This document shows, piece after piece, positions 2,371 to 59,286 of a DNA stretch of 64,000 nt. The notes under the pieces are model-generated. The model was not told where the DNA came from, ran no database searches, and saw only the letters and a program-made list of their open reading frames with translations. Source of the DNA: Rhodobacterales bacterium HTCC2255 (lineage in GTDB: Bacteria; Pseudomonadota; Alphaproteobacteria; Rhodobacterales; Rhodobacteraceae). Each line of letters opens with the position of its first letter. Within the stretch, counting starts at the first letter, position 1. The stretch is from contig DS022282.1 in assembly GCA_000153745.1 (NCBI GenBank), positions 416,027 through 480,026 of the forward strand, written 5' to 3'. The translations under genes were made by a program, and so were the position numbers.

Positions 2371-3858
2371 CTATGCCTCAAGTGTTGATTTAACTGCTCT
2401 TTTCCAGGCTAAATACTTTGTATTACGACATTCTTCATCCATACTTGGCTTGAACTCTCTTTCTTTTGTCCACTTAGATGAAAAGTCTTCTAGGTTAGGA
2501 TAAACACCTATATGCATTCCAGCCAACCAAGCTACTCCCAAAGCCGTTGTTTCAATGATTTCTGGTCGGTCTACTGGTGCGTTTATGATGTCAGACAGAA
2601 ACTGCATCGTCCAATCACTTGTACTCATACCCCCATCAACTCTAAGAGTAGGACTAACTCCTGTCATTCTCCAATCAGCTGACATAGCTTCAAGTAAATC
2701 ACGCGTTTGAAATCCAACACTTTCAAGAGCAGCCTTTGCAATTTCTGGTGCACCACTATTTCTTGTCAAACCATACACAGCTCCACGACATTCGGCGTTC
2801 CAATAAGGCGCACCCAAACCTACAAAAGCAGGCACCATAATTACGTTTTGTTCTTCATCAGCTTGCTGGGAAAGTTCTTGCGTTTCACTGGCGTGGCTAA
2901 TTATTTTCAATCCATCTCTCAACCACTGGACAACTGCTCCAGCAACAAAAATTGACCCCTCAAGAGCATATGTAGGCTTTCCATTAAATTGATAAGCAAT
3001 AGTGGTTAATAATTTATTTTTTGAAACTACAGGAGTATCGCCAGTATTTAATAATGCAAAACATCCAGTTCCATAAGTTGATTTCATCATACCTGGTTTA
3101 AAACAAGCCTGTCCAATTGTTGCCGCCTGTTGATCTCCAGCAACACCACAAATTGGTATAGTTTTATTAAATAAATTTGAATGAGTATCACCAAAATCTG
3201 CAGCACAATCTTTAACTTCTGGAAGCATTTTCATTGGGATATCCAGTAAATCACAGATCGTTTTACTCCAATGTCCCTTACGAATATCATAAAGCATAGT
3301 TCTGGCAGCATTAGTAGCGTCAGTAGCATGAACTTTACCGTTTGTAAGTTTCCAAATCAAAAAACAATCTACTGTCCCAAATAGCAATTCTCCCTTCTCA
3401 GCTCGAACACGCGCACCTTTTATGTTGTCTAATATCCATTTAAGTTTAGTGCTTGAGAAATACGGGTCTAATAATAAACCTGTACGATCTGTAATTAATT
3501 GTTCATTTCCGGCTAAGCGCATTTTTTCGCAAATATCGGCAGTTCGCCTGTCTTGCCATACAATTGCATTATAAATAGGTTCGCCAGTCTTTTTATCCCA
3601 AACTATTACTGTTTCTCGCTGGTTAGTTATACCAATTGCTTTAATCTTATGCATGTCTTTGCCAAGATCATTCATTACCTTATGACAAGTCTTTAAAGTG
3701 GTTTCCCACAAATCATTTGGGTCATGTTCTACCCAGCCAGATTTTGGAAAATACTGTTTAAATTCTGTTTGATCAGTTGCAACAACATTCATATTAATAT
3801 CGAATATCATACTTCGTGTTGATGTAGTTCCCTGATCAATTGCTAGTATAAAAGTCAT
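2371..3858 (-). CDS. glpK: Glycerol kinase
   Basis: Phosphorylates glycerol with ATP to sn-glycerol 3-phosphate in the cytoplasm. The 495-residue protein is full length (E. coli GlpK is 502). It has the FGGY-family phosphate loop DQGTTSTRS at residues 8-16, NQRET and WQDRRT in the sugar-binding half, and [11 protein letters not shown] in the ATPase half. The ATG at 3858 is preceded by a GGAG ribosome site. It lies 90 bp downstream of glpD on the same strand, so the two probably form a glpDK operon. No glpF facilitator is present next to it, which is unusual and fits glycerol being released inside the cell rather than imported free. Confidence 0.97.
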
Positions 3859-3948
3859 TTGAAATCTCCATGTATCTATAAAACTAATATTTAACTTACA
3901 TGGTAAGAGTGTTAGCTTTGGTAATTTATAGTATGATAAATTATTAAT

Positions 3949-5538
3949 TTATTTTGTTAAGTTATTATTTATCCACTCTGAAAGTATATGAATTTCTTTA
4001 TCAGAAAGTCTCAACCCTAATTTTGAGCGACGCCATATAATGTCATCAGCAGTCTGTGCATATTCTTTTGTAATCAACCAAAGTACTTCTCTTTCAGTTA
4101 ATGTAGCACCAAAATTTAAGCCTAAATCTTTATCAGTTTTAGCATTACCCAATAGATCAAAAGCATCTGTTCCATAAGCTTTAATTAATCTAATTGCCCA
4201 TTTATGACTGAGAAAATTATATTTTTTCAATAGTTTATTAATTAAATTTTCTAAGTCCTGAATATCGAAATCACCCCCAGGTAAAGGAATACCTGCAGTC
4301 CAACTTAAACCAACACTAGGCAGTATCTTAGAAATTTTATCTAAAGCATTTTCTGATAATTTTCTATAAGTTGTAATTTTGCCGCCAAATACATTAAGAA
4401 TTGGAGCACCAAGAGTTTGATCGATGCTCAAAACATAATCACGTGTAGCAGCTGATGCTGAGGAGGCATTATCATTATACAATGGTCTAACACCTGAATA
4501 AGTTTTTATAATATCATCGTCAGTTATTTTTAATTCAAGATATTCTGACGCAAAATTCATGAGATAGTTTTTTTCTTCAGTTGTACATTCAGGTTTTATA
4601 GATAAATCAGAATGTTCAACATCTGTAGTTCCTATTAGAGTAAAATCTGTTTCATATGGAATTGTGAAAATAATTCGACCATCTTCACCTTGAAAAAAGT
4701 AACATTTATCGTGATCATATAATTTTTTTGTAATTAGGTGACTTCCACGAACCAACCGAACGCCCTCCGAACTATTTAAGCGTACTGTATTTTGAATAAT
4801 ATCCTCAACCCAAGGACCACCCGCATTAACGATCAAGCGAGCTTTCACTATACGAGTAGTATTATCTTTCAACGACTGAAGAGTTAAATGCCAAATACCA
4901 TTACTTTGCTCTGCGGATATAACTTTTGTGCGAACATTAATTTTAGCACCTCTAATTTCAGCATCACGAGCATTCAGGATAACCAATCTGCTATCTTCAA
5001 TCCAACAATCAGAATATTCAAATGCCTTGATGAATTTATTTTTTAAAGGCTCACCTACTCTACTGTTTGGCAAATCAATAGCTTTTGTACCTTCAAGAAA
5101 ATCTCTTCCACCCAAATTATCATATAGAAATAATCCGAGTCTAATTAACCAGGAAGGCCGGCGACCTTTTAACCATGGCATTAATATATTTAATACTTTT
5201 GAAGTCGGCGTATCTACGTCAAAACGCATATTTTTATGGTATGGTAACACAAAACGCATAGGCCAAGAAATATGTGGCATAGCTTTAAGAAGTATCTCAC
5301 GTTCAATTAAAGCTTCTCGAACAAGGCGAACTTTCCAATATTCAAGATACCGAAGACCACCATGGAATAATTTAGTTGATGCTGATGATGTAGCAGATGC
5401 TAAATCATTCATCTCAGCCAACTCAACACTTAATCCTCTCCCAACAGCATCTCTTGCTATTCCACAACCATTAATACCACCACCAATAACAAAGATATCC
5501 ACATCGATATCATTATCTTTATCTTTATAATTATTCAT
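3949..5538 (-). CDS. glpD: Aerobic glycerol-3-phosphate dehydrogenase
   Basis: Membrane-associated flavoenzyme that oxidises glycerol 3-phosphate to dihydroxyacetone phosphate and passes electrons to quinone. The 529-residue protein is slightly longer than E. coli GlpD (501). An N-terminal FAD-binding motif GGGINGCGIARDA spans residues 19-31, followed by the GlpD signature SSASTKLFHGGLRYLE at 51-66. The C-terminal region resembles the usual GlpD cap domain. The gene is divergent from glpR, with a large inverted repeat about 50 bp upstream of its ATG that is probably the GlpR operator. It is the first gene of the minus-strand glpDK unit. Confidence 0.96.
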   Translation of the reverse strand: MNNYKDKDNDIDVDIFVIGGGINGCGIARDAVGRGLSVELAEMNDLASATSSASTKLFHGGLRYLEYWKVRLVREALIEREILLKAMPHISWPMRFVLPYHKNMRFDVDTPTSKVLNILMPWLKGRRPSWLIRLGLFLYDNLGGRDFLEGTKAIDLPNSRVGEPLKNKFIKAFEYSDCWIEDSRLVILNARDAEIRGAKINVRTKVISAEQSNGIWHLTLQSLKDNTTRIVKARLIVNAGGPWVEDIIQNTVRLNSSEGVRLVRGSHLITKKLYDHDKCYFFQGEDGRIIFTIPYETDFTLIGTTDVEHSDLSIKPECTTEEKNYLMNFASEYLELKITDDDIIKTYSGVRPLYNDNASSASAATRDYVLSIDQTLGAPILNVFGGKITTYRKLSENALDKISKILPSVGLSWTAGIPLPGGDFDIQDLENLINKLLKKYNFLSHKWAIRLIKAYGTDAFDLLGNAKTDKDLGLNFGATLTEREVLWLITKEYAQTADDIIWRRSKLGLRLSDKEIHILSEWINNNLTK

Positions 5539-5580
5539 AAAAAAATTCCGTAATATATAGAATCTTGAATATCATTAATA

Positions 5581-5634
5581 ACAAATACCATCAATAACGA
5601 ATGTTCGTTTATTTTCGTTATTGATGGTATTTGT
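5581..5634. promoter_or_regulatory. Putative GlpR operator: 21-bp perfect inverted repeat
   Basis: The arms 5581-5601 and 5614-5634 are perfectly complementary over 21 bases with a 12-base spacer. Nested inside is a shorter palindrome, AACGAATGTTCGTT at 5596-5609, and the hexamer TTCGTT recurs exactly 10 bp apart (5604 and 5614). The half-site ATGTTCG matches the core of the known E. coli GlpR operators. Its position between divergent glpD and glpR suggests control of both. The function is inferred; the repeat itself is directly visible. Confidence 0.75.
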
Positions 5635-5764
5635 TTGAATTTTGCATTATTAAATTTGCTCTATTAATATAGATTAATGGAATAACAGAATTTTAACAGA
5701 CTATACTAAAGATCAACATCCAACTATAAAATAAATATATTCTGACATTAAGCGAGCAAAAATT

Positions 5765-6529
5765 ATGGTCTCAAGTTTTAGACAAAAAGAAATATTAGAT
5801 ATTGCACGTAAAGACGGTAAAGTTACGGTCGACGGTTTAGCAGAGAAATATAATGTTACCGTTCAAACAATCAGAAGAGACCTATCCAGATTAACAGAAA
5901 CAGGGAAACTTGAACGAGTACATGGCGGTGCTGTTGTTCCTTCAGGAGTTGTAAATATTGAATATGAACAACGAAGACTGCTGAATAAAGCCGGAAAAAG
6001 AAATATAGCGGCTGAATGCGCTGCACGAATTCCCAATGGAGCTTCTGTATTTATAAATATTGGCACAACCACAGAAGCCGTTGCAAGAGAGCTTTTAAAT
6101 CATGATAATTTATTGGTAGTTACAAACAATCTTAATATAGCTAATATTTTAGCTACCAACAAAAATTGTGAAATAATTTTAGCTGGAGGTATACTAAGAC
6201 GTCTTGATGGTGGAATAGTTGGTGGCTTAACAGTAGAAATGGTTAAACAATTTAAGTTTGATTACTCAATTCTTGGATGTTCTGCAATTGATACAGATGG
6301 AGACTTGCTCGATTATGACGGTCAAGAAATCATAGTGAGCCAAACAGCAATTAATAGGTCGCGGAAAATTATAGTCGTTGCTGATTATCTCAAATTTGAA
6401 CGGAAAGCGCCGCTGACTAATTGTTCACTCTCAGATGCAAATATCATAATCACAGACAAACCCCTTTCAGAAAAACTTAAAAATAGCTGCAAAGAATGGA
6501 AAACCGAAGTCATTAATACTCAAAATTAA
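5765..6529 (+). CDS. glpR: DeoR-family transcriptional regulator, GlpR-type repressor
   Basis: A 254-residue DeoR-family protein. The N-terminal winged helix contains VDGLAEKYNVTVQTIRRDLSRL and ends in the HGGAV segment typical of the family. The C-terminal DeoRC sensor domain starts with the GTTTEAVA phosphate-binding loop and includes TNNLNIA and LAGGILRRLDGGIVGG. Family members bind phosphorylated sugars or glycerol 3-phosphate, which releases the operator. It is divergent from glpDK across the 21-bp inverted repeat, the standard arrangement for a local repressor. It converges with the beta-galactosidase gene with a 14-bp gap. Confidence 0.88.
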   Translation: MVSSFRQKEILDIARKDGKVTVDGLAEKYNVTVQTIRRDLSRLTETGKLERVHGGAVVPSGVVNIEYEQRRLLNKAGKRNIAAECAARIPNGASVFINIGTTTEAVARELLNHDNLLVVTNNLNIANILATNKNCEIILAGGILRRLDGGIVGGLTVEMVKQFKFDYSILGCSAIDTDGDLLDYDGQEIIVSQTAINRSRKIIVVADYLKFERKAPLTNCSLSDANIIITDKPLSEKLKNSCKEWKTEVINTQN

Positions 6530-6543
6530 TCAAAGTATTTTTA

Positions 6544-8433
6544 TTATCTTTTTTCTATAATTTTTACATCTGCCGGGCACAATGAAATACCATCAATATT
6601 TTGATTTTCATTACTGTAGTTCCAGATAAATCGATGATTTTTTGTTAATCTTTGCCTTACACCATCAGGCATTTCCAAATATTTAATATTTTGATCTTTC
6701 AATAATTTCTTAAATAATCTTTTTTTTGCTTCTTGATCCAAACAACCAGCTAAATAAGTTTTATTATTTTGCTGCAACACTATTGGATCTCCACATTCAG
6801 TTTCTTCAATAACTGATGCATCATGAGAAATGTCTTCTATCCACCTGACAACTGATCCTGGTTTCTTTAAACGTCTCGACATATTCTGTCGTATTGTTTC
6901 CACACGCTCCACAACCACATTCAACCCTGAAACATTTGGCGGTAATGGATTAGGAATTTGGAAATCTTTAGTCTTTGAATTAAATCTTGGCCCTAAGACT
7001 AAATGTGCAGAGCAATTTTCAATTGTATTGTTAGTTAAAAATAAACTTGGTGCAAAAACAATTTTATAATCATTAAGTTTTTTGTCATCACTAGAACAAA
7101 TATCAACATTTATACCAAGCTTTTTCAAGCAACTATACGTGTCAAAAACTTCATGAAAATAATCAAAATTTAAAGCTTGCGGTTGAATTTCCCAAGCCCA
7201 TTGAGATGGATAGTCGAATATTAATGCAACATCTGATGTGACCTGCTCAATCGTAGTTAATGCATTTATTTCATCATTAAGTTCTACAATTTCTTCCCAA
7301 GCTGGAGCTGGCTCATCATCTACACGTAATAAGCCAGCATGCATTTGTTCTTGCGCAAATGGTGCTTGGCGCCACCTAAAATAACATACAGTCTCAGCTC
7401 CATGAGCAATTGCTTCCCACGACCACAAGCGTACCATCCCTTTTAATGGCGCAGGATTGTATGAAGCCCAATTAACTGGACCTGGCTGTTGCTCCATAAC
7501 CCACCAACGATCACGCCCCACAGCCCTATATAAATCATGGTGAAATGATTGAAAGTCAGGGTCTCCTTGATAAGCATATTTTGCTTTAAAACTTTCATCA
7601 GCATCAGACACCATTTCTAAAAAACCAAGCGGATAACTATCCCAACTGGCAATATCTAGATCTGCACCAACATCATAATGGTCAAATGCAGTAATTCTTC
7701 CCATATAATTGTGTATTAATGGTTTCGAAGTAAATTCCCGCAAAATATTTACTTGAATACTATTAAAAGCAACAACTTGATCAGATGAATAACGTCTAAA
7801 ATCCATCACATGAGATGGATTTGCTTCAGTAACAGTTAAATTAGGTAATTCAATGTCTGAAAATTCATTTATTTCCATAGACCAGAATACATTTCCCCAT
7901 GCTTTGTTTAATGCATTAGGTGATTGATATTTTTGCGCCAACCAATCTCTAAAACCAATTAAGGCAGCCATACTATATGATAATGTGGTATCATGGCACC
8001 CATACTCATTATCTGTTTGCCAGGCCTGTACTGTTGAACCATATCTATTTGCTATTTCACGAGTAATCCGAGCAGCCTCTTTCCTGTATCCCAAATGGCT
8101 AAAACAATAATGTCGACGCGATCCAAATTTTCGCTCATTTCCCATTTTATCAACTGCAAGCATATCAGGATATTTATCCAGCACCCATCTTGGAGGTGTA
8201 GCAGTTGGTGTTCCCATTATTATGTCTAAATTATGCCTACGCAAAACCTCTACAACAGCATCCAACCATTCAAAGTCAAATGAACCTTCCTGGGGTTCAA
8301 TTCGACTCCAACAGAACTCACCTATTCGAACCCAAGATAATCCTAATTCAACCATGCGCAAAGCGTCTTTTTCCCACATTTCCCGTGGCCAATGCTCAGG
8401 ATAATAACATGTACCAAGTTTTGGATTAGTCAT
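6544..8433 (-). CDS. Beta-galactosidase, glycoside hydrolase family 42
   Basis: Hydrolyses terminal beta-D-galactosides in the cytoplasm, as no signal peptide is visible. The 629-residue protein begins with the GH42 hallmark YYPEHWP at residues 10-16. The acid/base glutamate is E143 in WQTDNEYG and the likely nucleophile is E314 in WWVMEQQPGPVNWA. The C-terminal part corresponds to the trimerisation domain and a short beta domain. Its ATG overlaps the alpha-galactosidase stop by 4 bp (ATGA), so it is the last gene of a five-gene operon with a sugar ABC importer. Family assignment is secure; the natural substrate is not known. Confidence 0.95.
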   Translation of the reverse strand: MTNPKLGTCYYPEHWPREMWEKDALRMVELGLSWVRIGEFCWSRIEPQEGSFDFEWLDAVVEVLRRHNLDIIMGTPTATPPRWVLDKYPDMLAVDKMGNERKFGSRRHYCFSHLGYRKEAARITREIANRYGSTVQAWQTDNEYGCHDTTLSYSMAALIGFRDWLAQKYQSPNALNKAWGNVFWSMEINEFSDIELPNLTVTEANPSHVMDFRRYSSDQVVAFNSIQVNILREFTSKPLIHNYMGRITAFDHYDVGADLDIASWDSYPLGFLEMVSDADESFKAKYAYQGDPDFQSFHHDLYRAVGRDRWWVMEQQPGPVNWASYNPAPLKGMVRLWSWEAIAHGAETVCYFRWRQAPFAQEQMHAGLLRVDDEPAPAWEEIVELNDEINALTTIEQVTSDVALIFDYPSQWAWEIQPQALNFDYFHEVFDTYSCLKKLGINVDICSSDDKKLNDYKIVFAPSLFLTNNTIENCSAHLVLGPRFNSKTKDFQIPNPLPPNVSGLNVVVERVETIRQNMSRRLKKPGSVVRWIEDISHDASVIEETECGDPIVLQQNNKTYLAGCLDQEAKKRLFKKLLKDQNIKYLEMPDGVRQRLTKNHRFIWNYSNENQNIDGISLCPADVKIIEKR

Positions 8434-10499
8434 ATTTTATGTCCTTCAATTACCCAAATAGATCCGGGGAAAGCACAAGGTAAATTTACTCCCCGCGACA
8501 TCAAGAATTGGCCTGAAAGCAATAACTCTTTGTCTCTTAACGCTATTCTACCTCTTGAAACTTGCGCCGCATTATCAGGTGTAATTAAATTTATTTTATA
8601 AATAGAGTTTGCATCTAAGCCCGTTAACATAACTGGCTTAGGTGAACTGTAAACAGATTGTTCCATTTGCACCACAAATGAGACAAATTTTTCATTATCA
8701 ATTGATACCTGAATTTCACCAATTTGAGATTTATCACTCAAGTCTAATCTATGGAAAATAGCTTTATGCATCCAATGGCGGTTTTCTTTATACCAATCAG
8801 TAACAGCTCTTAGTATTTTCACTTCTTCATCAGTAAGCTCTCGTGGATCCATTTCAAAACCCATATGCCTACTTGCAGCCACCCAAGCTCTAAGCGAAAT
8901 GTCAAAAATACGACCTGAAGTATGACATTTTCTTGGCCCAACATGTGACCCTATAACTTCCGATGGCAACCAGACGCTTGCATTATTTTGCATTTTAAAT
9001 CTTACCATTGCGTCATTACTATCAGATAACCAAACCCTGTGGGTAGTGCTCAAAACACCATAATCTATTCTTCCGCCACCAGATGAACAGCTTTCAAATT
9101 CAACATTTGGAAAAGCTGTGCGTAATTTATCTAAAAGACGATAAAAACCATTTGCTTGATTATGATCAGGAAAAGGTAAAACTCTATTATGATCCCATTT
9201 TATGTAAGATATCTTATTTTCAAATAATATTTTACTTATTTTCTCGAATAAATAACTTTGTACTTCCTTAATATTCAAATCTAAAACTAATTGATTACGC
9301 CCTAATGTTTGATTTTTTTTTCCAAGTATCCAATCAGGATTATTCTTAAACAACTTACTATTTGGACTCACCATTTCTGGTTCAAACCAAATTCCAAATT
9401 CCATTCCAATTTGATTAACATACTGTATTAATGGCGCTAGCCCTTCTGGGTATTTTCTTTTATCTATCTCCCAATCTCCAAGACTTGACGTGTCATCATC
9501 TCGGAGCCCAAACCAACCATCATCCAGAACAAACCTTTCAGCTCCTAAAGTTACAGCCAATTTTGCAATTTCTTTTAAATCTTTTAATGAATGTTTAAAG
9601 TAGATAGCTTCCCAACAATTATAATGAACAGGCCTTGGTAATTTTTCTAAAGTAGATGGAAGAATTTCTTTTCTTACGAAAGACTGAAATGATTGAGCAA
9701 TTCCATTAAGACCTTTTGAAGATTTTGAAACAAACATTGGCGCCGTTGATATTTTTTGCGTAAGCGCATTCTTAAAGGATTGTGAATGCCCAAATTGAAT
9801 CTGCCTTTGGCCAGTAGATAATTCCTCAATCTGCATCCTATGCCCACCAGACCAGCCATAATGAAAACCAACCGCAGATCCATCAGAATTTGTTGTGTTT
9901 TTATTCAACAGAATTAAACCAGGAAAATTTTCATGACTGGTTCTTCCAGAACGACTTTCTTTAACTACAACACCAGGCCTCCAGGTTAATCTGTCAAAAC
10001 AAAACTCATTAGTCCAATTACCTGAAACCTGAACAAACTCCTCACTCGAACAAAAATCTGGAATAATTGGTGCAGATAACCACCCAACATTTATTGGTTT
10101 TTTACTTTGTAAAGTTGTTTGAAACTTAAAAACTTCCCCATGGATACTTATTTTATGAAAAATAGATAATCCATTATATTCATCCCTACTTTCAAATACC
10201 ATTCCACCTTCTTTTTTAGCATCTATAAATTTAAAGTTGGGAAGTATGTCTATTCCATTCTCATCATGTAAAATTATGCCTGGTTGACCTAAAAACCCAT
10301 CCCCAGAAGTTGGACAAAAATTTATATATTCAGCTTTATCCATTACTCCTCCGCTAAAATCCTGAGGAAACGAATCTAATAATTGTGCTAGGTCTTCTTT
10401 GGAAGTTAATTTAACATCCCAATAAGCAATGAATGGGATACCACCATTACTTGATATTATAACTGTTTGTTCTTGAGTATCTAAACGCCAAGCGTTCAT
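8430..10499 (-). CDS. Alpha-galactosidase, glycoside hydrolase family 36
   Basis: Hydrolyses terminal alpha-D-galactosyl groups. From the ATG at 10497-10499 the protein has 689 residues, close to the 700-730 of bacterial GH36 enzymes. Key motifs are FVLDDGWFG near 323-331, the nucleophile in YIKWDHNR (D436), ESCSSGGGRIDYG near 469-481 and the acid/base region WLSDSNDAM near 490-498 (probably D493). No signal peptide is seen, so it acts on imported oligosaccharides. I chose this ATG because it overlaps the permease stop by 4 bp; longer readings run back into the permease gene. Its stop overlaps the GH42 start. Confidence 0.95.
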   Translation of the reverse strand: MNAWRLDTQEQTVIISSNGGIPFIAYWDVKLTSKEDLAQLLDSFPQDFSGGVMDKAEYINFCPTSGDGFLGQPGIILHDENGIDILPNFKFIDAKKEGGMVFESRDEYNGLSIFHKISIHGEVFKFQTTLQSKKPINVGWLSAPIIPDFCSSEEFVQVSGNWTNEFCFDRLTWRPGVVVKESRSGRTSHENFPGLILLNKNTTNSDGSAVGFHYGWSGGHRMQIEELSTGQRQIQFGHSQSFKNALTQKISTAPMFVSKSSKGLNGIAQSFQSFVRKEILPSTLEKLPRPVHYNCWEAIYFKHSLKDLKEIAKLAVTLGAERFVLDDGWFGLRDDDTSSLGDWEIDKRKYPEGLAPLIQYVNQIGMEFGIWFEPEMVSPNSKLFKNNPDWILGKKNQTLGRNQLVLDLNIKEVQSYLFEKISKILFENKISYIKWDHNRVLPFPDHNQANGFYRLLDKLRTAFPNVEFESCSSGGGRIDYGVLSTTHRVWLSDSNDAMVRFKMQNNASVWLPSEVIGSHVGPRKCHTSGRIFDISLRAWVAASRHMGFEMDPRELTDEEVKILRAVTDWYKENRHWMHKAIFHRLDLSDKSQIGEIQVSIDNEKFVSFVVQMEQSVYSSPKPVMLTGLDANSIYKINLITPDNAAQVSRGRIALRDKELLLSGQFLMSRGVNLPCAFPGSIWVIEGHKI

Positions 10500-11344
10500 T
10501 TTACTGCACCTAATGTCAAACCAGCAATAAAATGTTTTTGCATTGTGAAAAACATTAGCACTGGAGGGAGAGCGGCAACAATTGATCCTGCTGACACTAA
10601 ATGCCATTGTGAAATCCATTGGCCATTCAAAGAGTATAATCCAGCTGTTACAGGCTGTGAATCAACTCCCTGAGTAAGAACTGTTGCCCAAAAGTAATCA
10701 TTCCAAATAAATGTAAATATCAATACAGACAGCGCAGCAATAGCAGGTTTCATAAGTGGAATTACTATATACCAGAATATTTGAAATTCATTGACACCTT
10801 CAACACGTGCGGCTTCAATAAGTTCTCGCGGTAATGCTTTTATAAAATTTCGCATAAATAAAGTGCAAAACCCTGCTTGAAAGGCAATGTGAAACAATAT
10901 CAAAGCCCAAACTGAGTTATAGACACCCATTTGAACAGACAAATCACGTACAGGTACCATCAATATCTGAAAGGGTACAAAGTTTCCTGCAATAAATAGA
11001 AAGAATATTAATATATTACCTTTAAAATTATAAACCGCCAAAGCAAAACCAGTCATACATGACAAAGCGACAGCACCAAATACAGTGGGAATAGTCACTC
11101 TGAAACTATTCCACATGTATTGAGCAAGTGGCGTATTTTTAAAAACAGATGTATAATTTTCATAAAGGTCAAATGAAGTTGGCCATCCCCAATAATTTCC
11201 TGATATTAGGTCTCCGCCTGAACGAAAAGAGGTCAATGCTACTGCTATAAGCGGCAACAACCAAAGAATTAAAACTATTGGTAATGCTGTTTTGTAAACA
11301 GATTGAGTAAGGATATTTGTATTTTCAATCGGCTTTGGAAACAT
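10496..11344 (-). CDS. Sugar ABC transporter permease (MalG/UgpE type)
   Basis: This 282-residue inner-membrane protein has about six membrane segments and the binding-protein-dependent permease EAA loop near residues 176-195 (IEAARVEGVNEFQIFWYIVIPL). It is the second of two permeases of a CUT1-type sugar importer. It sits 2 bp downstream of the other permease and overlaps the alpha-galactosidase start by 4 bp, so transport and hydrolysis genes are translationally coupled. The substrate is presumably a galactoside, by context only. Confidence 0.92.
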   Translation of the reverse strand: MFPKPIENTNILTQSVYKTALPIVLILWLLPLIAVALTSFRSGGDLISGNYWGWPTSFDLYENYTSVFKNTPLAQYMWNSFRVTIPTVFGAVALSCMTGFALAVYNFKGNILIFFLFIAGNFVPFQILMVPVRDLSVQMGVYNSVWALILFHIAFQAGFCTLFMRNFIKALPRELIEAARVEGVNEFQIFWYIVIPLMKPAIAALSVLIFTFIWNDYFWATVLTQGVDSQPVTAGLYSLNGQWISQWHLVSAGSIVAALPPVLMFFTMQKHFIAGLTLGAVK

Positions 11345-11346
11345 AG

Positions 11347-12243
11347 TTAATTTGCTTTCTCGTCTCGATACATCTTCAATAAGAAAAATGTTATGTAAAC
11401 CATCATTATAAGAAATAATATTACCGCAATGGCTGCACCATACCCCATTCTAAATCCATATTCTGAAAAACTCTTTTCATACATGTAATAAGCTAATACT
11501 CGGCTTGACCCCCAAGGACCTCCCGCAGTCATTATTGAAACCATATCAAAACTTCTCAAAGCACCAATCACTGTGACAACTATCGCAATAAAAGTTGCTG
11601 GTTTTAGTTGAGGTAAAATAATATACCACAACATTTTCCAACCTTTAGCGTTATCTAATCGACCAGCTTCAATTTGTTCAGAATCTACAGCGTTTAATCC
11701 TGTTAAATATAAAATCATACAATATGCTGTTTGTGGCCATAATCCAGCAGCGATAATGCCATAAGTCACGTATCGCTCATCAGCTAATATAGCAATTCCA
11801 GTACCCCCAAAAAACTCTATGACTATATTTAATAACCCAAAATTTGGGTCATAAAACCAAGAGAACACCAATCCAACTACAACTTGCGAAATAACGAAGG
11901 GAAAGAAGAACATTGATTTGTAAATTCTTATTCCTCTTACAGATTGATTTAAAAATAGTGCCATAAACAATCCAATTGGAACTGCTAACATGTATAATAT
12001 TAACCAAATAAAATTATTCTTAAGTGATTTATAAAAAGCCTCATCATCAAATAGTTCAACATAATTACCCATGCCAATCCATGTTTTCTCACCAAGACCA
12101 TCCCAGTCATAAAAACTTATATTTATGGATCCTGCAATTGGCCAAATGACATAGGTTATGAACATCAAAAGTCCAGGAGCCATAAATAGCCATGGTGCAA
12201 TCTTTAATTTATTTTTTTTGAAATAAGAATTCATATTAATCAT
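11347..12243 (-). CDS. Sugar ABC transporter permease (MalF/UgpA type)
   Basis: A 298-residue inner-membrane protein with six predicted helices and a conserved EAA-type loop (IEAGRLDNAKGWKMLWYIILP, roughly residues 191-211). It is a CUT1-family permease, the usual partner of the MalG-like protein encoded immediately downstream. A stem-loop separates it from the binding-protein gene upstream. Two in-frame ATGs (12243 and 12234) are possible starts; neither has a strong ribosome site, so the first is kept. Confidence 0.92.
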   Translation of the reverse strand: MINMNSYFKKNKLKIAPWLFMAPGLLMFITYVIWPIAGSINISFYDWDGLGEKTWIGMGNYVELFDDEAFYKSLKNNFIWLILYMLAVPIGLFMALFLNQSVRGIRIYKSMFFFPFVISQVVVGLVFSWFYDPNFGLLNIVIEFFGGTGIAILADERYVTYGIIAAGLWPQTAYCMILYLTGLNAVDSEQIEAGRLDNAKGWKMLWYIILPQLKPATFIAIVVTVIGALRSFDMVSIMTAGGPWGSSRVLAYYMYEKSFSEYGFRMGYGAAIAVILFLIMMVYITFFLLKMYRDEKAN

Positions 12244-12253
12244 CTATGCAAAA

Positions 12254-12283
12254 TATCCAGCACGCATTTGTACGTGCTGGATA
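12254..12283 (-). terminator. Intercistronic stem-loop after the galactoside binding-protein gene
   Basis: Arms 12254-12264 and 12273-12283 form an 11-bp perfect stem around an 8-base loop. It lies between the stop of the binding-protein gene and the start of the first permease gene, with no clear U-tract. It most likely protects or partly terminates the upstream message, so that binding protein is made in excess of permease. Confidence 0.7.
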
Positions 12284-12289
12284 CCAGTA

Positions 12290-13528
12290 TTATTTATAAA
12301 CTCGAGTACGAACTTTTTCTAATCTTTTTAGAATAGCGTCTAAACGTTCTGGTTTAACCATAAATTCTTGGAAACCTTCCATTCCAGCTTGCGCCATTTC
12401 TGCAGGTGCATCCCTGTCAAAGAATTGCGCGATGCCGCCAGTTGTGCTTGAGAGCATTGACATTCCAGCCTGCAAGAATTTGTCATCACTTACAGAACTA
12501 TTCTTGTTAATTGGAAGTTGTCCTAATGTTGCATTTATTTTAGTTTGAACATCAGCACGCCCTAAAAATGCCAAGAACTTCTTTGCATCCACTTTGTTTT
12601 TTGCATTTGCTGGGATGTGAATAGTGTCTGTTGGAGCTTCTTCTGCCATATCAATATTAGGATTGATTTGTGGAAATTGGAAAAATCCTAACTGATCATC
12701 ACTTAATCCCGCTTCGCGAAGTGGTGCTACAGCAAAGTTACCCATTACATACATTGCTGCATCACCTTGAACCATAGGTGCTAAAGCTTCCTGCCAAGAT
12801 AAAGCAGCATGGTTATCAATGAAGAAACCTGCGTCAACTAACTCTTTCCAGTTTGCGAAAGTAGCTTTTACGCGGTCATCAGTCCAAGAAACTTCACCTT
12901 TTGTTAAAGCCATATGGAAATCATACCCGTTGGTTCTAAGATTCATATAATCAAACACACCACCAGCTGTCCAAAGGTACTTCGAACCAATCGTTATTGG
13001 TTTTACACCATTGGCATTAAGTGTTGCTCCAGCGGCTTTAAAATCATCCCAAGTTTTAGGAATACCAATTCCTAAATTCTCAAAAATATCTTTGCGATAA
13101 TAAACACCCCAATTGTAATAAGTATAAGGTACCCCCCACTTCTTACCATCAATCGTCATTGATGCTGAAGCAGATGCTAATGTGTCATTCAAACCAGCTG
13201 AGGCCCAAACATCATCAACTGGCTCAAAAAGGCCTGCATTAACATATGGTAACATTCTGTTTCCAGCATACCAGTTTGCAAGATCTGGAGCATCGGCTGT
13301 TAAGAAATTTCTGATAGAAGTTTTATAACCTTCGTGATCAAAAAGGTTCCATTTAACTGTTATATCTGAGTTTTCAGCTTCAAAATCTTTTATAAGTTGC
13401 TCAAATGCTGCTTTTGGCGCTGGATCTGATGTATCAGTATTTATAACTAAAGTACCAGCAAAAGCTGTACTTGCCATAAGCGCAAAAGTAACTGCTGATG
13501 CAACAGATGTCTTAAATTTAAAATTCAT
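12290..13528 (-). CDS. Sugar ABC transporter substrate-binding protein (CUT1 family)
   Basis: A periplasmic solute-binding protein of 412 residues. The signal peptide runs through about residue 24 (ASTAFA) and is followed by a mature start GTLVINTDTSD. The remainder fits the COG1653 fold, with YRKDIFENLG and TWDDFKAAG in the usual positions. It is the first gene of the minus-strand operon binding protein, permease, permease, alpha-galactosidase, beta-galactosidase. The ATG at 13526-13528 has a GGGAG ribosome site. The ligand is unknown; the attached glycosidases suggest an alpha- and/or beta-galactoside. Confidence 0.92.
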   Translation of the reverse strand: MNFKFKTSVASAVTFALMASTAFAGTLVINTDTSDPAPKAAFEQLIKDFEAENSDITVKWNLFDHEGYKTSIRNFLTADAPDLANWYAGNRMLPYVNAGLFEPVDDVWASAGLNDTLASASASMTIDGKKWGVPYTYYNWGVYYRKDIFENLGIGIPKTWDDFKAAGATLNANGVKPITIGSKYLWTAGGVFDYMNLRTNGYDFHMALTKGEVSWTDDRVKATFANWKELVDAGFFIDNHAALSWQEALAPMVQGDAAMYVMGNFAVAPLREAGLSDDQLGFFQFPQINPNIDMAEEAPTDTIHIPANAKNKVDAKKFLAFLGRADVQTKINATLGQLPINKNSSVSDDKFLQAGMSMLSSTTGGIAQFFDRDAPAEMAQAGMEGFQEFMVKPERLDAILKRLEKVRTRVYK

Positions 13529-13551
13529 AAGTTTCTCCCAAACTTTTTTTT

Positions 13552-13563
13552 GTTAGCGGTAAC
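13552..13563. promoter_or_regulatory. Possible LacI-family operator (GTTAGCGGTAAC)
   Basis: The sequence fits GTTAnCGnTAAC, a palindrome with the central CG typical of LacI/GalR-family operators. It sits 24-35 bp upstream of the galactoside binding-protein ATG, in the divergent promoter region shared with the ATPase gene. No LacI-family regulator is encoded in this window, so the regulator would have to be elsewhere. Confidence 0.4.
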
Positions 13564-13703
13564 GATTATCATGATTATATTTCCACTCTTTACAAGTTAG
13601 ATTTAATGAGCTTTAAAAAATTATCAGCATTTTGAAGCGGTTGAGAGATCAAAAAGTCTCATTTTTTGACAATTAACATTAAATTTTATTCTATGGGATC
13701 CTA

Positions 13704-14747
13704 ATGGCAAATGTAATATTATCTAAAACAATCAAAAAATATGGTAGTATTGAAGTGATTCATGGTATCGATCTCAAAATAGAGGACGGTGAATTTTGTG
13801 TATTTGTTGGACCATCCGGATGTGGAAAATCAACTTTATTACGTATGATTTCAGGTTTGGAAAATACAACATCAGGAAATATTTACATCGGATCAGAAGA
13901 TGTAACTAATGTTGACGCCTCAGATCGAGGGGTCGCCATGGTTTTTCAATCATATGCATTGTACCCACACATGACAGTAAGAGAAAATATGGGTTTTGGT
14001 TTAAAAATGAACAAAACTCCAAAAGATGAAATCAACGAAAAAGTAAATAAAGCAACAGAAATTTTAAAACTTGAACCATATCTAGATCGTAAACCAAAAG
14101 CTTTGTCAGGCGGGCAAAGGCAAAGGGTTGCAATTGGTCGCGCAATTGTTAGAGGTCCAGAAGTTTTCCTTTTTGATGAACCACTTTCAAATCTAGATGC
14201 AGAATTACGCCTTGAAATGCGTGTTGAGTTAGCACGACTTCATAAAGAACTTGGTACAACAATGATTTACGTAACGCATGATCAAGTGGAGGCTATGACT
14301 TTAGCGGATAAGATAGTAGTTTTAAACGATGGCATAGTGGAACAAGTCGGAACGCCAATGGAATTGTATAGCAACCCAAAGAATCGATTTGTAGCTGGTT
14401 TCATTGGTTCACCCGCAATGAATTTTTTTGAATTAACAAATAAAAATGACACATTAGTTTCCAATCAATTCCCAGATATTGCATTAAAAAAAATAAATGG
14501 TTTCAGTAAAGTAACTGCAGGCATACGCCCAAATGATATTAAATTAAAAAAATCTGGAAATATGAATATCGACCTAATTGAAGAATTGGGAGGAGTAACC
14601 TATTTATATTTATCTGGTAAAGATAATCTAAAATTAGTTGTAGAGCATCGTGAAAAAAATATTCCAAAATTGAATGCAAAAGTCGGCTTAAAAATCAAAG
14701 AGGAAGATTTGCTATATTTCGATAAGGAAACTGGAAAGCGCATTTAA
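13704..14747 (+). CDS. Sugar ABC transporter ATP-binding protein (MalK/UgpC/MsmK type)
   Basis: Cytoplasmic ATPase of 347 residues energising a CUT1 importer. It shows Walker A GPSGCGKST near residues 38-46, the Q-loop in MVFQSYALYPHM, the signature [15 protein letters not shown] near 134-148, Walker B VFLFDEPLSNLD and the switch VTHDQVEAM. A TOBE-type C-terminal domain follows from about residue 235. It is divergent from the galactoside binding-protein operon, which lacks its own ATPase, so the two very likely form one transporter. It overlaps the convergent galK stop by 4 bp. Confidence 0.93.
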   Translation: MANVILSKTIKKYGSIEVIHGIDLKIEDGEFCVFVGPSGCGKSTLLRMISGLENTTSGNIYIGSEDVTNVDASDRGVAMVFQSYALYPHMTVRENMGFGLKMNKTPKDEINEKVNKATEILKLEPYLDRKPKALSGGQRQRVAIGRAIVRGPEVFLFDEPLSNLDAELRLEMRVELARLHKELGTTMIYVTHDQVEAMTLADKIVVLNDGIVEQVGTPMELYSNPKNRFVAGFIGSPAMNFFELTNKNDTLVSNQFPDIALKKINGFSKVTAGIRPNDIKLKKSGNMNIDLIEELGGVTYLYLSGKDNLKLVVEHREKNIPKLNAKVGLKIKEEDLLYFDKETGKRI

Positions 14748-15817
14748 AATTGCATATCTGAAACAAGCCAAGTCCCTTTTATTAAATTTGTAAGTTCAGG
14801 CACTAAGTTTTTTGCACATTCTCTATCCGCTAACACAACAATGCATCCGCCAAAGCCTGCTCCAGTCATCCTCGCACCGAGCGCGCCGAAATCTTGGGAG
14901 AAAGTTACCATGGTATCCATTTTTTCTGTTGAAACACAAAAATCTTTTGACAAACTTTTGTGACCTTCATTCATTATTTTGCCAAATAGTTTTGTGTCAT
15001 TATCTCTTAATGCTTTCACACATTCTAATACTCTTAAATTTTCAGAAATTACATGTTGAGATTTAATTCGATCATCATAATTTTTTACTTTGGATAAATC
15101 ACTTAAAGTTGCGCTTCTTAAACTACTAATTCCCATATCTTTGCAGGCTCTATCACAAGAAGCTCTCCTATCATTATATGCATTATCTTTCAGCTTTCTG
15201 CTCACTCCTGAATGAATTGTCAGGACATTAACATTATCAAAAAATTCTAAATTTTCTGTTTTTCCAGATTGTATATCAAATAATAATGCAGAGTTTTGTT
15301 TTCCTACTGAAATAACCATTTGGTCCATAAGACCACACTGCACTCCAACGTATTCATTTTCTGCTTTTTGAGCTAGTTTTGCTATATTTTCATCCGAAAT
15401 AACAAGATTAAAGCCTTCTCGTAAAGCTTTAAGCATTGCAACTTGTATTGCCGCAGATGAGCTTACTGATGCTCCAACAGGCAAATCACTATAGACGGAA
15501 ACACAAAGCCCTATAGTTTTATCCAGACCACTTACTTCTAGTGCACCCAGTAGATAATCTGTCCAATCCCCATTTGGCTTATCTCCAATAAATCTCTTCG
15601 TTTCTTTTTCAAATTGCTCTGAGTTGGCGATTAAGGTACCACTTGGACCTTTGCTGATGAATATATAAACGCCCAAAGGCAGTGGCATTGGCAATACCAA
15701 TCCATCGTTAAAGTCTGTATATTCTCCGATTAGATTTACCCGACCCGGGGCAAATGCACTAGCTATGACATCACCAAACTTGCTCTTGTGGTTTTCTAAT
15801 AAATCAATCATTTTCAT
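14744..15817 (-). CDS. galK: Galactokinase
   Basis: Phosphorylates galactose at C1 with ATP, the first committed Leloir step. From the ATG at 15815-15817 it has 357 residues. GHMP-kinase motifs are all present: GRVNLIGEYTDFNDG near residues 26-40 (galactose binding), PVGASVSSSAAIQVA near 114-128 (ATP loop) and MTGAGFGGCIVVL near the C terminus. A second in-frame ATG at 15811 is an equally possible start. It is divergent from galT with only about 56 bp between them. Confidence 0.95.
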   Translation of the reverse strand: MKMIDLLENHKSKFGDVIASAFAPGRVNLIGEYTDFNDGLVLPMPLPLGVYIFISKGPSGTLIANSEQFEKETKRFIGDKPNGDWTDYLLGALEVSGLDKTIGLCVSVYSDLPVGASVSSSAAIQVAMLKALREGFNLVISDENIAKLAQKAENEYVGVQCGLMDQMVISVGKQNSALLFDIQSGKTENLEFFDNVNVLTIHSGVSRKLKDNAYNDRRASCDRACKDMGISSLRSATLSDLSKVKNYDDRIKSQHVISENLRVLECVKALRDNDTKLFGKIMNEGHKSLSKDFCVSTEKMDTMVTFSQDFGALGARMTGAGFGGCIVVLADRECAKNLVPELTNLIKGTWLVSDMQF

Positions 15818-15873
15818 TCTTGTACGGTTGCAGTTTTTTATTAGTATCGTCAACAAATATTAGGATTATTGAT

Positions 15874-16923
15874 TTGAAATTTCATATACACCATCATGAA
15901 AAATTGGATGGGCGTGCTCTTTGGCTTTATTCTGAAAAAGAGCGGACCTATAATATTACAAATGATTTGGAACCATTAGAAAAAGCAAATCAACCATTTA
16001 AAAAAATACACCCTTTACGAGATGAACCAGTATACTTTAACCCAAGTCGGAATATTCGCACTTTAGCCCCCCCACCAGAATATAATCCGCTAGCAGCAGT
16101 TCAAATTAATGGACACCCTGGAGAAATTCCTGTTGAAGATTTTGAAGTTGCTATTTTTCAAAATCGTTGGCCTGGCTTGTCCAATGTATCATCTGAATTT
16201 AAAAAAGATACTTCTGCATACGGTACATGTGAAGTAGTAGTTTATACACCAAATCCATTAGGTTCATTAGCTGACTTATCGATCTCGAATATTATCCTAC
16301 TGTTGAACGCCTTAAGTGATAGATTTGAAAAAATCATGGATGACAATAATATTTCATACGTATTGCCATTTGAAAATCGTGGTGATTTTGTTGGCACTTC
16401 ATTACCCCACCCACACGGTCAAATATATGCGTTTGGAGATTTGCCTCCAAATATTGAACGCCAAATGGAAAATGCAAAGAAAAATAATGTATTTTCATCT
16501 TTGATCAAAAATATAAAAACTGAATTAATTGTTGCTGAAACTGAACACACTTTGACGTTTTGCCCCGAATTTTCAAGATATCCATATGAAACTTGGATCT
16601 TGCCAAAAGTACACCATTCAAAACCAAGTGAAATGACTGATGATGAAATAAATGACATCTCAAATGCTATTAAGGCTCAAGTGAAATTCTTTGATAATAT
16701 CTTCAATAGTCCCATGCCATATGTTTTATGGCATGCATTCTCAGCAAGAAACTATTCACAATATTGGCCATATCATATTCAGTTTTGGCCATTACAACGC
16801 GGCGATGACAAAATGAAATATTTGGCATCTGTTGAACAAATCACTGGCTTATTTTTAGTCGATGTCATGCCTGCAGATGCTGCAAAACATATCAGAGATT
16901 TTCATCGGAAAAACGTAGTATAG
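15874..16923 (+). CDS. galT: Galactose-1-phosphate uridylyltransferase
   Basis: Transfers UMP from UDP-glucose to galactose 1-phosphate. The active-site motif LPHPHGQIYAF (HPH, with the second His as nucleophile) lies near residues 175-185, after VLPFENRGDFVG. The C-terminal half contains a second HIT-like region, including YHIQFWPL. I chose the TTG at 15874, giving 349 residues, because an AGGA ribosome site lies 8 bases upstream and the sequence upstream of it does not look like the family. The 3' end overlaps galM on the other strand by 32 bp. Confidence 0.92.
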   Translation: MKFHIHHHEKLDGRALWLYSEKERTYNITNDLEPLEKANQPFKKIHPLRDEPVYFNPSRNIRTLAPPPEYNPLAAVQINGHPGEIPVEDFEVAIFQNRWPGLSNVSSEFKKDTSAYGTCEVVVYTPNPLGSLADLSISNIILLLNALSDRFEKIMDDNNISYVLPFENRGDFVGTSLPHPHGQIYAFGDLPPNIERQMENAKKNNVFSSLIKNIKTELIVAETEHTLTFCPEFSRYPYETWILPKVHHSKPSEMTDDEINDISNAIKAQVKFFDNIFNSPMPYVLWHAFSARNYSQYWPYHIQFWPLQRGDDKMKYLASVEQITGLFLVDVMPADAAKHIRDFHRKNVV

Positions 16924-17830
16924 TTTCTTGTAGATATTTCTCATTAGGGCCCAACAATGCAGATGGATAAAACTCATTATTTGGCGCATCAGGCCAAAGT
17001 TGAGGCTCGAGTGCTACGCCAAGCTTATGACCTGTATAAACCTGCAAGCCTGGCTCAGAACTCATTAGATCCATGGAAACTGATTCATATGATAGCTTGG
17101 CAACGTTTTTTATTTTAGTTCGATAATTTGAAATACAAAAATTATGATCTAACGTTTCAAAAGAGGACAGCTTTTTCTTTGCCCTGAAATCAAATTGACT
17201 TTTACTGACACTACATAGGTCTAATGGAATTCCCTCTGAATCAACATCGATATAGCTATCAGCTTCAATCTGCAATTCATGCCCCTCAATGGTCCCTCCT
17301 CCCTTTAAGTTGAAATAACTATGGTGTGCAAAACTACATAATGTTTCTGCATCTGTTGTTGCAGATATTTCTATTTTTAAAGAAGAATTTGACAGCAATT
17401 CATACTTAACTTGTGTCCTTAAATTTCCAGGAAATCCCATCTCACCATCAGGAAGTAGAACTTCCAAAACAACATGCGATTGTGACTGTTCTAAAATTTG
17501 CCAATTTTTGTAACAGCTACCTTTAGATCCTCCATGAATATGATGCCCTGTATCAGTATTGATATCCGCTTGTATAGTTCCATGTGATAGTTTTGCATAT
17601 CCATTTTTCAACCTATTTGCAAAACGCCCAATTACAGCGCCATAATAAAATTTATTTTTAATATATGGTTGTAGCTCATTATATCCTAATACTACTGACC
17701 TTTGCTTAAAATGCATATTTTGTAATATTGCCCCAAAAGTAAGTATGTTTACAGAGAGCTCATTTGAAAATAATTTTATTAAATAAACATTTTCACCATT
17801 ATCCATAATACCAAATATTCTATTTTGCAT
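16892..17830 (-). CDS. galM: Aldose 1-epimerase (mutarotase)
   Basis: Interconverts alpha and beta anomers of galactose, needed because beta-galactosidase yields the beta form while galactokinase uses alpha. The 312-residue protein shows the family pattern: VIGRFANRLKNG near residues 64-75, DTGHHIHGG near 92-100, the catalytic His in FAHHSYFNLKG near 166-176 and the catalytic Glu in GVALEPQLWPDAPN near 279-292. It is full length and has no signal peptide. The gene converges on galT with overlapping 3' ends. Confidence 0.93.
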   Translation of the reverse strand: MQNRIFGIMDNGENVYLIKLFSNELSVNILTFGAILQNMHFKQRSVVLGYNELQPYIKNKFYYGAVIGRFANRLKNGYAKLSHGTIQADINTDTGHHIHGGSKGSCYKNWQILEQSQSHVVLEVLLPDGEMGFPGNLRTQVKYELLSNSSLKIEISATTDAETLCSFAHHSYFNLKGGGTIEGHELQIEADSYIDVDSEGIPLDLCSVSKSQFDFRAKKKLSSFETLDHNFCISNYRTKIKNVAKLSYESVSMDLMSSEPGLQVYTGHKLGVALEPQLWPDAPNNEFYPSALLGPNEKYLQETILRFSDENL

Positions 17831-51555: not shown

Positions 51556-51624
51556 AGTAAACCCTCCCTGAGTAAAATAAGAATATATTCTAGAAATATC
51601 ATGGAACACTAATTCATACCAAAC

Positions 51625-51654
51625 ATCAACAATGAATGTTCGTTTTGCTTCGCT
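51625..51654. promoter_or_regulatory. GlpR-like operator upstream of phnD
   Basis: This 30-base element matches 24 of 30 positions with 5590-5619, the core of the operator upstream of glpD. Both share TGAATGTTCGTT-like cores with the TTCGTT/TTCGCT hexamers starting 10 bp apart (51639 and 51649). It starts about 70 bp upstream of the phnD ATG. A DeoR-family regulator is the likely binder. Confidence 0.55.
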
Positions 51655-51726
51655 TTGCAACCATGTGTAAAAGATAAAATATAATATTTTTTAAAAAAAA
51701 TATTTAAATACATGTGCCTAGGGTAT

Positions 51727-53471: not shown

Positions 53472-53590
53472 AAACAACAAAACAACAAAAAATATTCCAA
53501 AAAAACAAAAAAAATATAATATATGACGAAATAATCTATAAATTTTCATATATATCTAATAATAATATTTTTTTTGTTGTTTTGTTGTTT
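53472..53590. repeat. Inverted repeat with 21-bp arms between the HAD-IIA and DeoR genes
   Basis: The arms 53472-53492 and 53570-53590 are perfectly complementary and are separated by 77 bp of AT-rich DNA. Each arm holds two copies of an AAACAAC-type unit (TTGTTGTTT on the other strand). Such repeated half-sites in a divergent promoter suggest cooperative or looped repression by the neighbouring DeoR protein. The repeat is seen directly; the role is inference. Confidence 0.6.
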
Positions 53591-53629
53591 TTTATTCAAT
53601 ACATTCATCACGAATCTGGGGGGATCAAT

Positions 53630-54403: not shown

Positions 54404-54405
54404 TA

Positions 54406-55428: not shown

Positions 55429-55461
55429 TTTCACTAAATTTCAAATCCATGGGAGGATATA

Positions 55462-56715: not shown

Positions 56716-56728
56716 ATAAATTAAAATT

Positions 56729-56749
56729 CCGGCCCCTAAACGGGGCCGG
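56729..56749 (+). terminator. Intercistronic stem-loop after the Ugp-like binding-protein gene
   Basis: CCGGCCCC at 56729-56736 and GGGGCCGG at 56742-56749 form an all-GC 8-bp stem with a 5-base loop. It is 13 bp after the stop and 24 bp before the permease ATG. The GC stem stands out in an AT-rich genome. No U-run follows, so mRNA protection is more likely than full termination. Confidence 0.75.
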
Positions 56750-56773
56750 CACTAATTACAAAAGGTTATAAAT

Positions 56774-59267: not shown

Positions 59268-59286
59268 TATCTTATTTGAGAAAAAA

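What the first reader, a model, noticed from the sequence alone, without database searches (positions are those of the whole stretch)
2371..17830. A possible galactosylglycerol utilisation island
Seen in sequence: GlpR, GlpD and GlpK adjoin an ABC importer fused into one operon with a cytoplasmic GH36 alpha-galactosidase and GH42 beta-galactosidase, then galK, galT and galM. Known: digalactosylglycerol, the headgroup of the plastid lipid DGDG, has a terminal alpha-galactose on a beta-galactosyl-glycerol; floridoside is alpha-galactosyl-glycerol. Inference: the enzymes form a complete route from such compounds to galactose 1-phosphate derivatives and DHAP. No glpF is present, so free glycerol import is not the obvious role, and both glycosidases lack signal peptides. 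A lactose or melibiose role would not explain the glycerol genes.
Basis: partly seen in the sequence, partly recalled or inferred. Interest (0 to 1): 0.82.

Follow-up and report, generated by a model that had tools for sequence, protein, structure and literature searches.

The report
Galactoside uptake operon beside glycerol genes
A marine bacterium carries what looks like an acquired version of a sugar-uptake operon common in its relatives, for molecules containing galactose; it sits beside ordinary glycerol genes, and the evidence does not show that the two form one pathway.

Summary
The genes are real: glpK, glpD, glpR, GH42, GH36, a CUT1 importer, galK, galT, galM. The galactosylglycerol pathway is not supported as stated. 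The importer-GH36-GH42 block is a widespread Rhodobacterales galactoside locus: of the best 80 GH36 loci, 65 carry at least two De Ley-Doudoroff genes, 2 carry glpR/glpD. PMC5507952 described the kind and proposed alpha-galactosides. Two congeners have htpG-galM-glpR-glpD-glpK with no galactoside genes there; in the window's lineage the block lies between galM and glpR. Its transporter groups with other genera, apart from seven same-genus loci, suggesting horizontal gain. In five congeners with both, they lie clearly apart. Control looks separate: a GlpR-type operator at glpR/glpD, none before the receptor gene, which has a LacI-type palindrome also found before gap, gap-zwf and pckA. Unusual: the relatives' IclR gene and oxidative route are missing, Leloir genes stand in. 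Galactosylglycerols remain possible, untested substrates. Against my reading: one Octadecabacter genome has GH42-galM-glpR-glpD.

The parts
2371..3858 (-). glpK, glycerol kinase (older neighbour, not part of the cassette)
   Evidence: TIGR01311 697 bits over cut-off
3949..5538 (-). glpD, glycerol-3-phosphate dehydrogenase
   Evidence: NF008899 720 bits over cut-off
5596..5609 (.). GlpR-type operator AACGAACATTCGTT in the glpR/glpD gap
   Evidence: core CGAACATTCGTTATTG in 7 of 9 distinct same-genus glpR/glpD gaps printed, not in L130, L131, nor in L067 of another genus; best of 63,987 scanned positions with a PWM trained on six sites including this one
5765..6529 (+). glpR, DeoR-family regulator
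   Evidence: PF08220 + PF00455; NF008154 234 bits, below cut-off
6544..8433 (-). GH42 beta-galactosidase, cytoplasmic
   Evidence: PF02449 468 bits; nearest solved 6y2k, 1kwg
8430..10499 (-). GH36 alpha-galactosidase, cytoplasmic, start corrected by inference
   Evidence: PF02065 353 bits; nearest solved AgaB/AgaA 4fnq/4fnr; same 4-base overlap with the permease gene
10496..11344 (-). CUT1 permease (MalG/MsmG position)
   Evidence: PF00528
11347..12243 (-). CUT1 permease (MalF/MsmF position)
   Evidence: PF00528
12290..13528 (-). periplasmic binding protein, AcbH-like
   Evidence: phmmer 3oo6 E 5.4e-58; model pLDDT 91.4, Foldseek top five hits all AcbH
13552..13563 (.). LacI-type palindrome GTTANCGNTAAC in the binding-protein promoter
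13704..14747 (+). UgpC/MsmK-like ATPase of the importer, divergent
   Evidence: NF008653 474 bits over cut-off
14744..15856 (-). galK, galactokinase (start uncertain; overlaps galT start)
   Evidence: TIGR00131 235 bits over cut-off
15820..16923 (+). galT (start uncertain)
   Evidence: PF01087 + PF02744; TIGR00209 just under cut-off
16892..17830 (-). galM, aldose 1-epimerase; a galM is adjacent to glpR in cassette-free congeners
   Evidence: PF01263
18009..19853 (+). htpG, flanking gene, same place in cassette-free congeners
   Evidence: PF00183
1200..2330 (-). MFS transporter, flanking gene on the glpK side, same place in congeners
   Evidence: PF07690

Best explanation
The window holds a lineage-specific variant of the Rhodobacterales CUT1 galactoside locus, probably placed by horizontal transfer between galM and glpR of an older galM-glpR-glpD-glpK neighbourhood. 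The AcbH-like receptor captures galactose-bearing small molecules, the ABC importer brings them in, GH36 removes alpha-linked and GH42 beta-linked galactose in the cytoplasm, and galM/galK/galT plus galE elsewhere pass galactose to glucose 1-phosphate. In most of the relatives examined the locus carries De Ley-Doudoroff genes and an IclR regulator; here both are missing. The importer promoter instead carries a LacI-type palindrome also found before gap, between gap-zwf and a lacI-family gene, and before pckA, which suggests control by a global CceR-like sugar regulator. The glp genes form a separate unit with its own GlpR-type operator. Shown: gene content, synteny with and without the cassette, transporter phylogeny, distribution of the motifs. 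Inferred: substrates, direction (gain rather than loss), that the motifs work, and the regulator's identity.
For: Of the best 80 loci fetched by GH36: GH42 65, IclR 63, at least two De Ley-Doudoroff genes 65, glpR/glpD 2, glpK 1. Cassette-free htpG-galM-glpR-glpD-glpK in L125 and L126; cassette next to glpR in the window, in L042/L122/L123 (G141) and in L043/L124 (G143). Transporter tree: window and L042 group with Phaeobacter marinintestinus, Mameliella, a Sulfitobacter S190 plasmid and others (SH-like 0.986), away from the seven same-genus loci L137-L143. In five of those seven a GH4 glycosidase fills the slot of GH36 while GH42 stays, so the slot itself is kept for what is probably an alpha-galactosidase. 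Galactokinase matches in 2 of the genus's 33 genomes, own and G141 (G143's contig ends inside the cassette); KDGal kinase not found in the own genome; galE found. Motifs. Receptor. The kind of locus was proposed for alpha-galactosides in three Rhodobacteraceae (PMC5507952, section 14 read whole).
Against: No substrate was tested. AcbH is named in the titles seen as having an exclusive preference for beta-D-galactopyranose, so the receptor might take galactose itself. Gain rather than loss rests on one FastTree tree and two cassette-free congeners. L067 shows a second adjacency of a galactoside locus to galM-glpR-glpD, and its galM groups with the window genus's galM (0.977), so the neighbourhood may not be wholly accidental. 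The LacI-type motif is no more frequent in the genome than its reversed control (7 against 8 places); only its placement supports it.
Confidence: 0.8

Rival explanations
1. A dedicated galactosylglycerol system: floridoside or mono-/digalactosylglycerol is imported, GH36 and GH42 free galactose and glycerol, and GlpK/GlpD finish the glycerol.
For: All enzymes are adjacent in the window, G141 and G143; GH36 and GH42 usually occur together in this locus (65 of 80); Octadecabacter sp. B2R22 has a GH42-galM-glpR-glpD order; digalactosylglycerol carries both linkages (general knowledge).
Against: 2 of 60 loci with at least 2.5 kb beyond GH42 have glp genes, one of them near kin of the window; glpRDK stand at the same place without galactoside genes in L125/L126; clearly unlinked in five congeners that have both; no GlpR-type operator at the importer.
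Confidence: 0.12
2. A general importer for galactose and simple galactosides (melibiose, raffinose, lactose-type) from algal or other glycans, with no special ligand. This is compatible with the best explanation; it only fixes the ligand.
For: Closest solved receptor is AcbH, a galactose receptor; PMC5507952 proposes alpha-galactosides; the alpha-galactosidase slot can hold GH36 or GH4.
Against: A galactose-only receptor would not explain the cytoplasmic galactosidases kept in the locus.
Confidence: 0.6
3. The linkage is ancestral and the congeners of L125/L126 lost the cassette, keeping galM as a relic.
For: L067 has cassette-galM-glpR-glpD and its GalM groups with the genus's GalM.
Against: The window's transporter is neither of the type in L137-L143 nor of L067's type, and it sits on the other side of galM from L067's cassette.
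Confidence: 0.2

Closest known systems
Rhodobacteraceae CUT1 alpha-galactoside / De Ley-Doudoroff locus (PMC5507952, section 14; also Ruegeria sp. TM1040, L029)
   Same: CUT1 importer with a cytoplasmic alpha-galactosidase; in L029 also GH42 and the same order from receptor to GH36
   Different: IclR gene and De Ley-Doudoroff genes missing; galK/galT/galM instead; LacI-type palindrome at the promoter; glpRDK next door
AcbH, galactose receptor of Actinoplanes (PDB 3oo6-3ooa)
   Same: best sequence match (E 5.4e-58) and best structure match (30-31% identity, TM 0.82-0.83 by query length)
   Different: from an actinobacterium (recalled); the window receptor occurs with cytoplasmic galactosidases; ligand of the window receptor unknown
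SmoF sulfoquinovosylglycerol receptor (PDB 7nbz)
   Same: receptor for a plastid-lipid headgroup, weak sequence match (E 4.8e-6)
   Different: far below the AcbH match; no sign of a shared ligand

Membership tests
Rhodobacteraceae CUT1 alpha-galactoside locus as in PMC5507952 | CUT1-type ABC importer with cytoplasmic alpha-galactosidase | tested here: met
Rhodobacteraceae CUT1 alpha-galactoside locus as in PMC5507952 | De Ley-Doudoroff galactose enzymes in the locus | tested here: not met
   none matched in the window locus; KDGal kinase not found in the genome
Rhodobacteraceae CUT1 alpha-galactoside locus as in PMC5507952 | IclR-family regulator in the locus | tested here: not met
   61 of 63 loci with ATPase and receptor have it; not in L042 and L071 of those, nor in the window
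Leloir pathway | galK, galT, galE (galM) | tested here: met
   galT just under one equivalog cut-off
Galactosylglycerol utilisation system (hypothetical) | conserved linkage of glpRDK with the galactosidase operon | tested here: not met
   2 of 60 loci
Galactosylglycerol utilisation system (hypothetical) | shared GlpR control | tested here: not met
   best GlpR-type score in the receptor/ATPase gap ranks 603 of 63,987; a scan of sequence only
Galactosylglycerol utilisation system (hypothetical) | receptor binds and enzymes cleave galactosylglycerols | not testable with these tools
   needs binding and enzyme assays
AcbH-type galactose receptors | sequence and fold closest to AcbH among solved structures | tested here: met
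AcbH-type galactose receptors | binds beta-D-galactopyranose | not testable with these tools
   no ligand data

The most novel reading that the evidence does not exclude
The whole Rhodobacterales GH36/GH42 importer family serves algal galactosylglycerols (floridoside and the headgroup of DGDG), a galactolipid counterpart of the sulfoquinovosylglycerol importers; the adjacency to galM-glpR-glpD in the window lineage and separately in Octadecabacter B2R22 is selected.
Probability: 0.1. Interest if true: 0.75.

Novelty: new variant of a known kind. Interest (0 to 1): 0.3.

Why it matters
It shows a marine bacterium with a 2.3 Mb genome taking up a galactoside operon whose relatives mostly feed the De Ley-Doudoroff route, running it through the Leloir route instead, and apparently without the local IclR regulator but with a motif shared by central sugar genes. 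It also tempers an attractive inference from gene adjacency. The galactosylglycerol question itself stays open and cheap to test.

Tried and rejected
GlpR control of the importer: no GlpR-type site in the receptor/ATPase gap; G141 has a half-site-like ATTCGTTAT there (score -0.6, rank 109 of its locus) that the window does not keep. Glycerol ABC transport: the receptor gene beside glpK in L127 (not named by NCBIfam; taken as a glycerol receptor only from its place) has no match at E <= 1e-40 in the own genome or in G141-G144; it has one in 14 of 33 genomes of the genus. Origin of galK/galT: the eight best plasmid records listed for each showed 34.7-38.1% (galK: Deinococcus, Vibrio, Pseudoalteromonas) and 37.0% (galT: Thermus) identity; not resolved. 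Literature: searches (1 listed; 15 of 15; 20 of 50 listed; 0; 3 of 3; 12 of 167 listed) on galactosylglycerol, digalactosylglycerol, floridoside or the sulfoquinovosylglycerol parallel showed no title describing a bacterial import operon for galactosylglycerols; I saw listings only there. From PMC8233162, PMC10675870 and PMC13372026 I saw passages. AcbH ligand contacts were not compared, as I had no coordinates or text of that paper.

Limits: the 80 loci are the best of at least 587 and were chosen by GH36 similarity; 15 of 80 lack GH42, at least partly because contigs end. With at least 4 kb beyond GH42 the count is 1 of 45 (L043; L067's stretch is shorter). The PWM was trained on six glpR/glpD sites including the window's own. 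The tree used 46 of 47 loci that I picked from those fetched. The structure alignment used the window's receptor and 33 of the 67 complete receptors listed. Hits covering under 30% or 25% of a query were dropped, as were weaker overlapping hits. G141 is listed as 6% contaminated and has a second, IclR-linked receptor on a short contig (L144).
Full report
What is there. The window (31-40% GC in 2-kb steps) lies in a 2.3 Mb genome of a genus with 33 held genomes. The nearest named records are 'Rhodobacteraceae bacterium Water_Bin34' (L042, GH36 88% identical) and 'uncultured Amylibacter sp.' FRAM18_bin021 (L043, 71%). The GH36 gene probably starts at 10499, with the 4-base overlap seen in annotated relatives, and galK, galT, galM and the ATPase gene lie on alternating strands, so the operon proper is receptor-permease-permease-GH36-GH42. 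galE is elsewhere in the genome (427 bits), so the Leloir pathway is complete. Active-site motifs that I recognised by eye (KWDHNR and SDSND in GH36, DNEYG and MEQQPG in GH42, HPH in GalT) are recalled, not from a call.

The galactoside block is a known kind. A scan of species genomes with GH36 gave the best 80 of at least 587 loci. Matching them against the window genes and Ruegeria TM1040's De Ley-Doudoroff genes: GH42 in 65 of 80, receptor 67, IclR 63, at least two De Ley-Doudoroff genes 65, galK and galT 4 each, glpR and glpD 2 each, glpK 1. IclR is present in 61 of 63 loci that have both ATPase and receptor genes. PMC5507952 (section 14 read whole) describes a CUT1 importer, cytoplasmic alpha-galactosidase, IclR factor and De Ley-Doudoroff genes together in three Rhodobacteraceae and proposes alpha-galactoside uptake. 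In the family, GH42 of this type occurs in 192 of 394 genomes at E <= 1e-120 and GH36 in 33 of 120 at E <= 0.001, own genome counted.

Same-genus versions. Seven congeners have the transporter with an IclR gene and De Ley-Doudoroff genes (L137-L143; L140 is cut by its contig end), GH42 in six of the seven. Two carry GH36; in the other five a GH4 glycosidase fills that slot. A Phaeobacter inhibens plasmid with the same transporter type also has GH4 (L028). So the locus keeps a probable alpha-galactosidase even when the family changes, which fits galactosides in general.

The glp genes look like older neighbours. In congeners G144 and G142 (L125, L126) the order is htpG-galM-glpR-glpD-glpK-MFS-YitT-like, contiguous, without galT, galK, importer, GH36 or GH42, and these genomes have only weak receptor matches elsewhere. 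In the window, G141 (L123 and L122, whose contig ends overlap) and G143 (L124, contig ends inside the cassette) the block sits next to glpR. Of seven congeners that have both the transporter and GlpD apart from these, five are clearly unlinked: G120, G122, G124 and G151 with the receptor gene more than 70 kb from either end of a contig that lacks GlpD, and G139 with 2.15 Mb between them by coordinate on a 3.45 Mb contig; G127 and G146 have contigs too short to judge. In the 30 best GlpR-centred loci from the family, 28 have glpD beside glpR and only the window's own has GH42 there.

It was probably acquired. A FastTree tree of receptor plus both permeases from 46 loci puts the window and L042 with Phaeobacter marinintestinus, Mameliella, a Sulfitobacter plasmid, Oceanomicrobium and others (SH-like support 0.986), apart from the seven same-genus loci. 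Galactokinase matches in 2 of 33 genomes of the genus, own and G141, and the 2-dehydro-3-deoxygalactonokinase was not found in the own genome while 13 of 33 have it.

Regulation looks separate. An operator AACGAACATTCGTT lies in the glpR/glpD gap at 5596, and its core recurs in 7 of 9 other same-genus gaps printed, not in L130 and L131. The gap in front of the receptor gene has no such site (best rank 603 of 63,987). In many relatives' rows that gap carries a GTTTCA...TGGAAC-like element next to the IclR gene (read by eye); gene and element are both missing here. Instead there is GTTAGCGGTAAC at 13552, kept in form in L042. The own genome has 7 places with GTTANCGNTAAC, no more than the reversed control (8), but 5 of the 7 lie between genes: a pair before gap, one between gap-zwf and a lacI-family gene, one between pckA and an HPr-kinase-like gene, and this one; the other two lie inside long reading frames that I did not classify. 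PMC5507952 (passages) says CceR is a LacI-family regulator of glycolysis, gluconeogenesis and related genes in Rhodobacteraceae. That the regulator here is CceR, and that the site works, are inferences; I did not see the published motif.

Ligand. The receptor's best match by sequence and by predicted structure is AcbH, whose title reports an exclusive preference for beta-D-galactopyranose (paper not read). This supports a galactosyl ligand but cannot tell galactose, melibiose, raffinose or galactosylglycerol apart.

Results against my reading. Octadecabacter sp. B2R22 (L067) has GH42-galM-glpR-glpD in a row, and its GalM groups with the window genus's GalM (0.977). Its transporter is of another type and its cassette lies on the other side of galM, so the two adjacencies look independent. 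Two such cases may be chance or weak selection; I leave about one chance in ten for the galactosylglycerol reading.

Noticed in passing
window 53582-60924: Second DeoR/GlpR-type regulator followed by a UgpC/UgpB-like ABC importer, a metallophosphoesterase and a Na/Pi cotransporter gene (family scores below several cut-offs): a possible organophosphate salvage unit that could also feed GlpD.
   Followed up: partly
window 51631-51644: One-mismatch copy of the GlpR-type operator within the first codons, as called, of a PhnD-like receptor gene (50581-51660) of a phosphonate-type ABC operon with HAD hydrolases.
   Followed up: no
L067 16892-22184: Octadecabacter sp. B2R22: GH42-galM-glpR-glpD adjacency, apparently independent of the window's.
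   Followed up: partly
L137-L139, L141, L142: In five same-genus galactoside loci a GH4 glycosidase stands in the slot that holds GH36 in the window: a non-orthologous exchange of the probable alpha-galactosidase.
   Followed up: partly
L028 6797-18406: Phaeobacter inhibens plasmid: a relative of the receptor and permeases (64-73%) sits with a sulfatase, a GH4 enzyme and a cellulase-family hydrolase instead of GH36/GH42.
   Followed up: partly
L182 1546-2683: The one MIP channel gene found in the genome lies beside a low-molecular-weight phosphatase/arsenate-reductase-like gene, suggesting an arsenic rather than glycerol role.
   Followed up: partly
window 4928-5530: A 200-codon open frame antisense to glpD, probably a shadow frame.
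   Followed up: no
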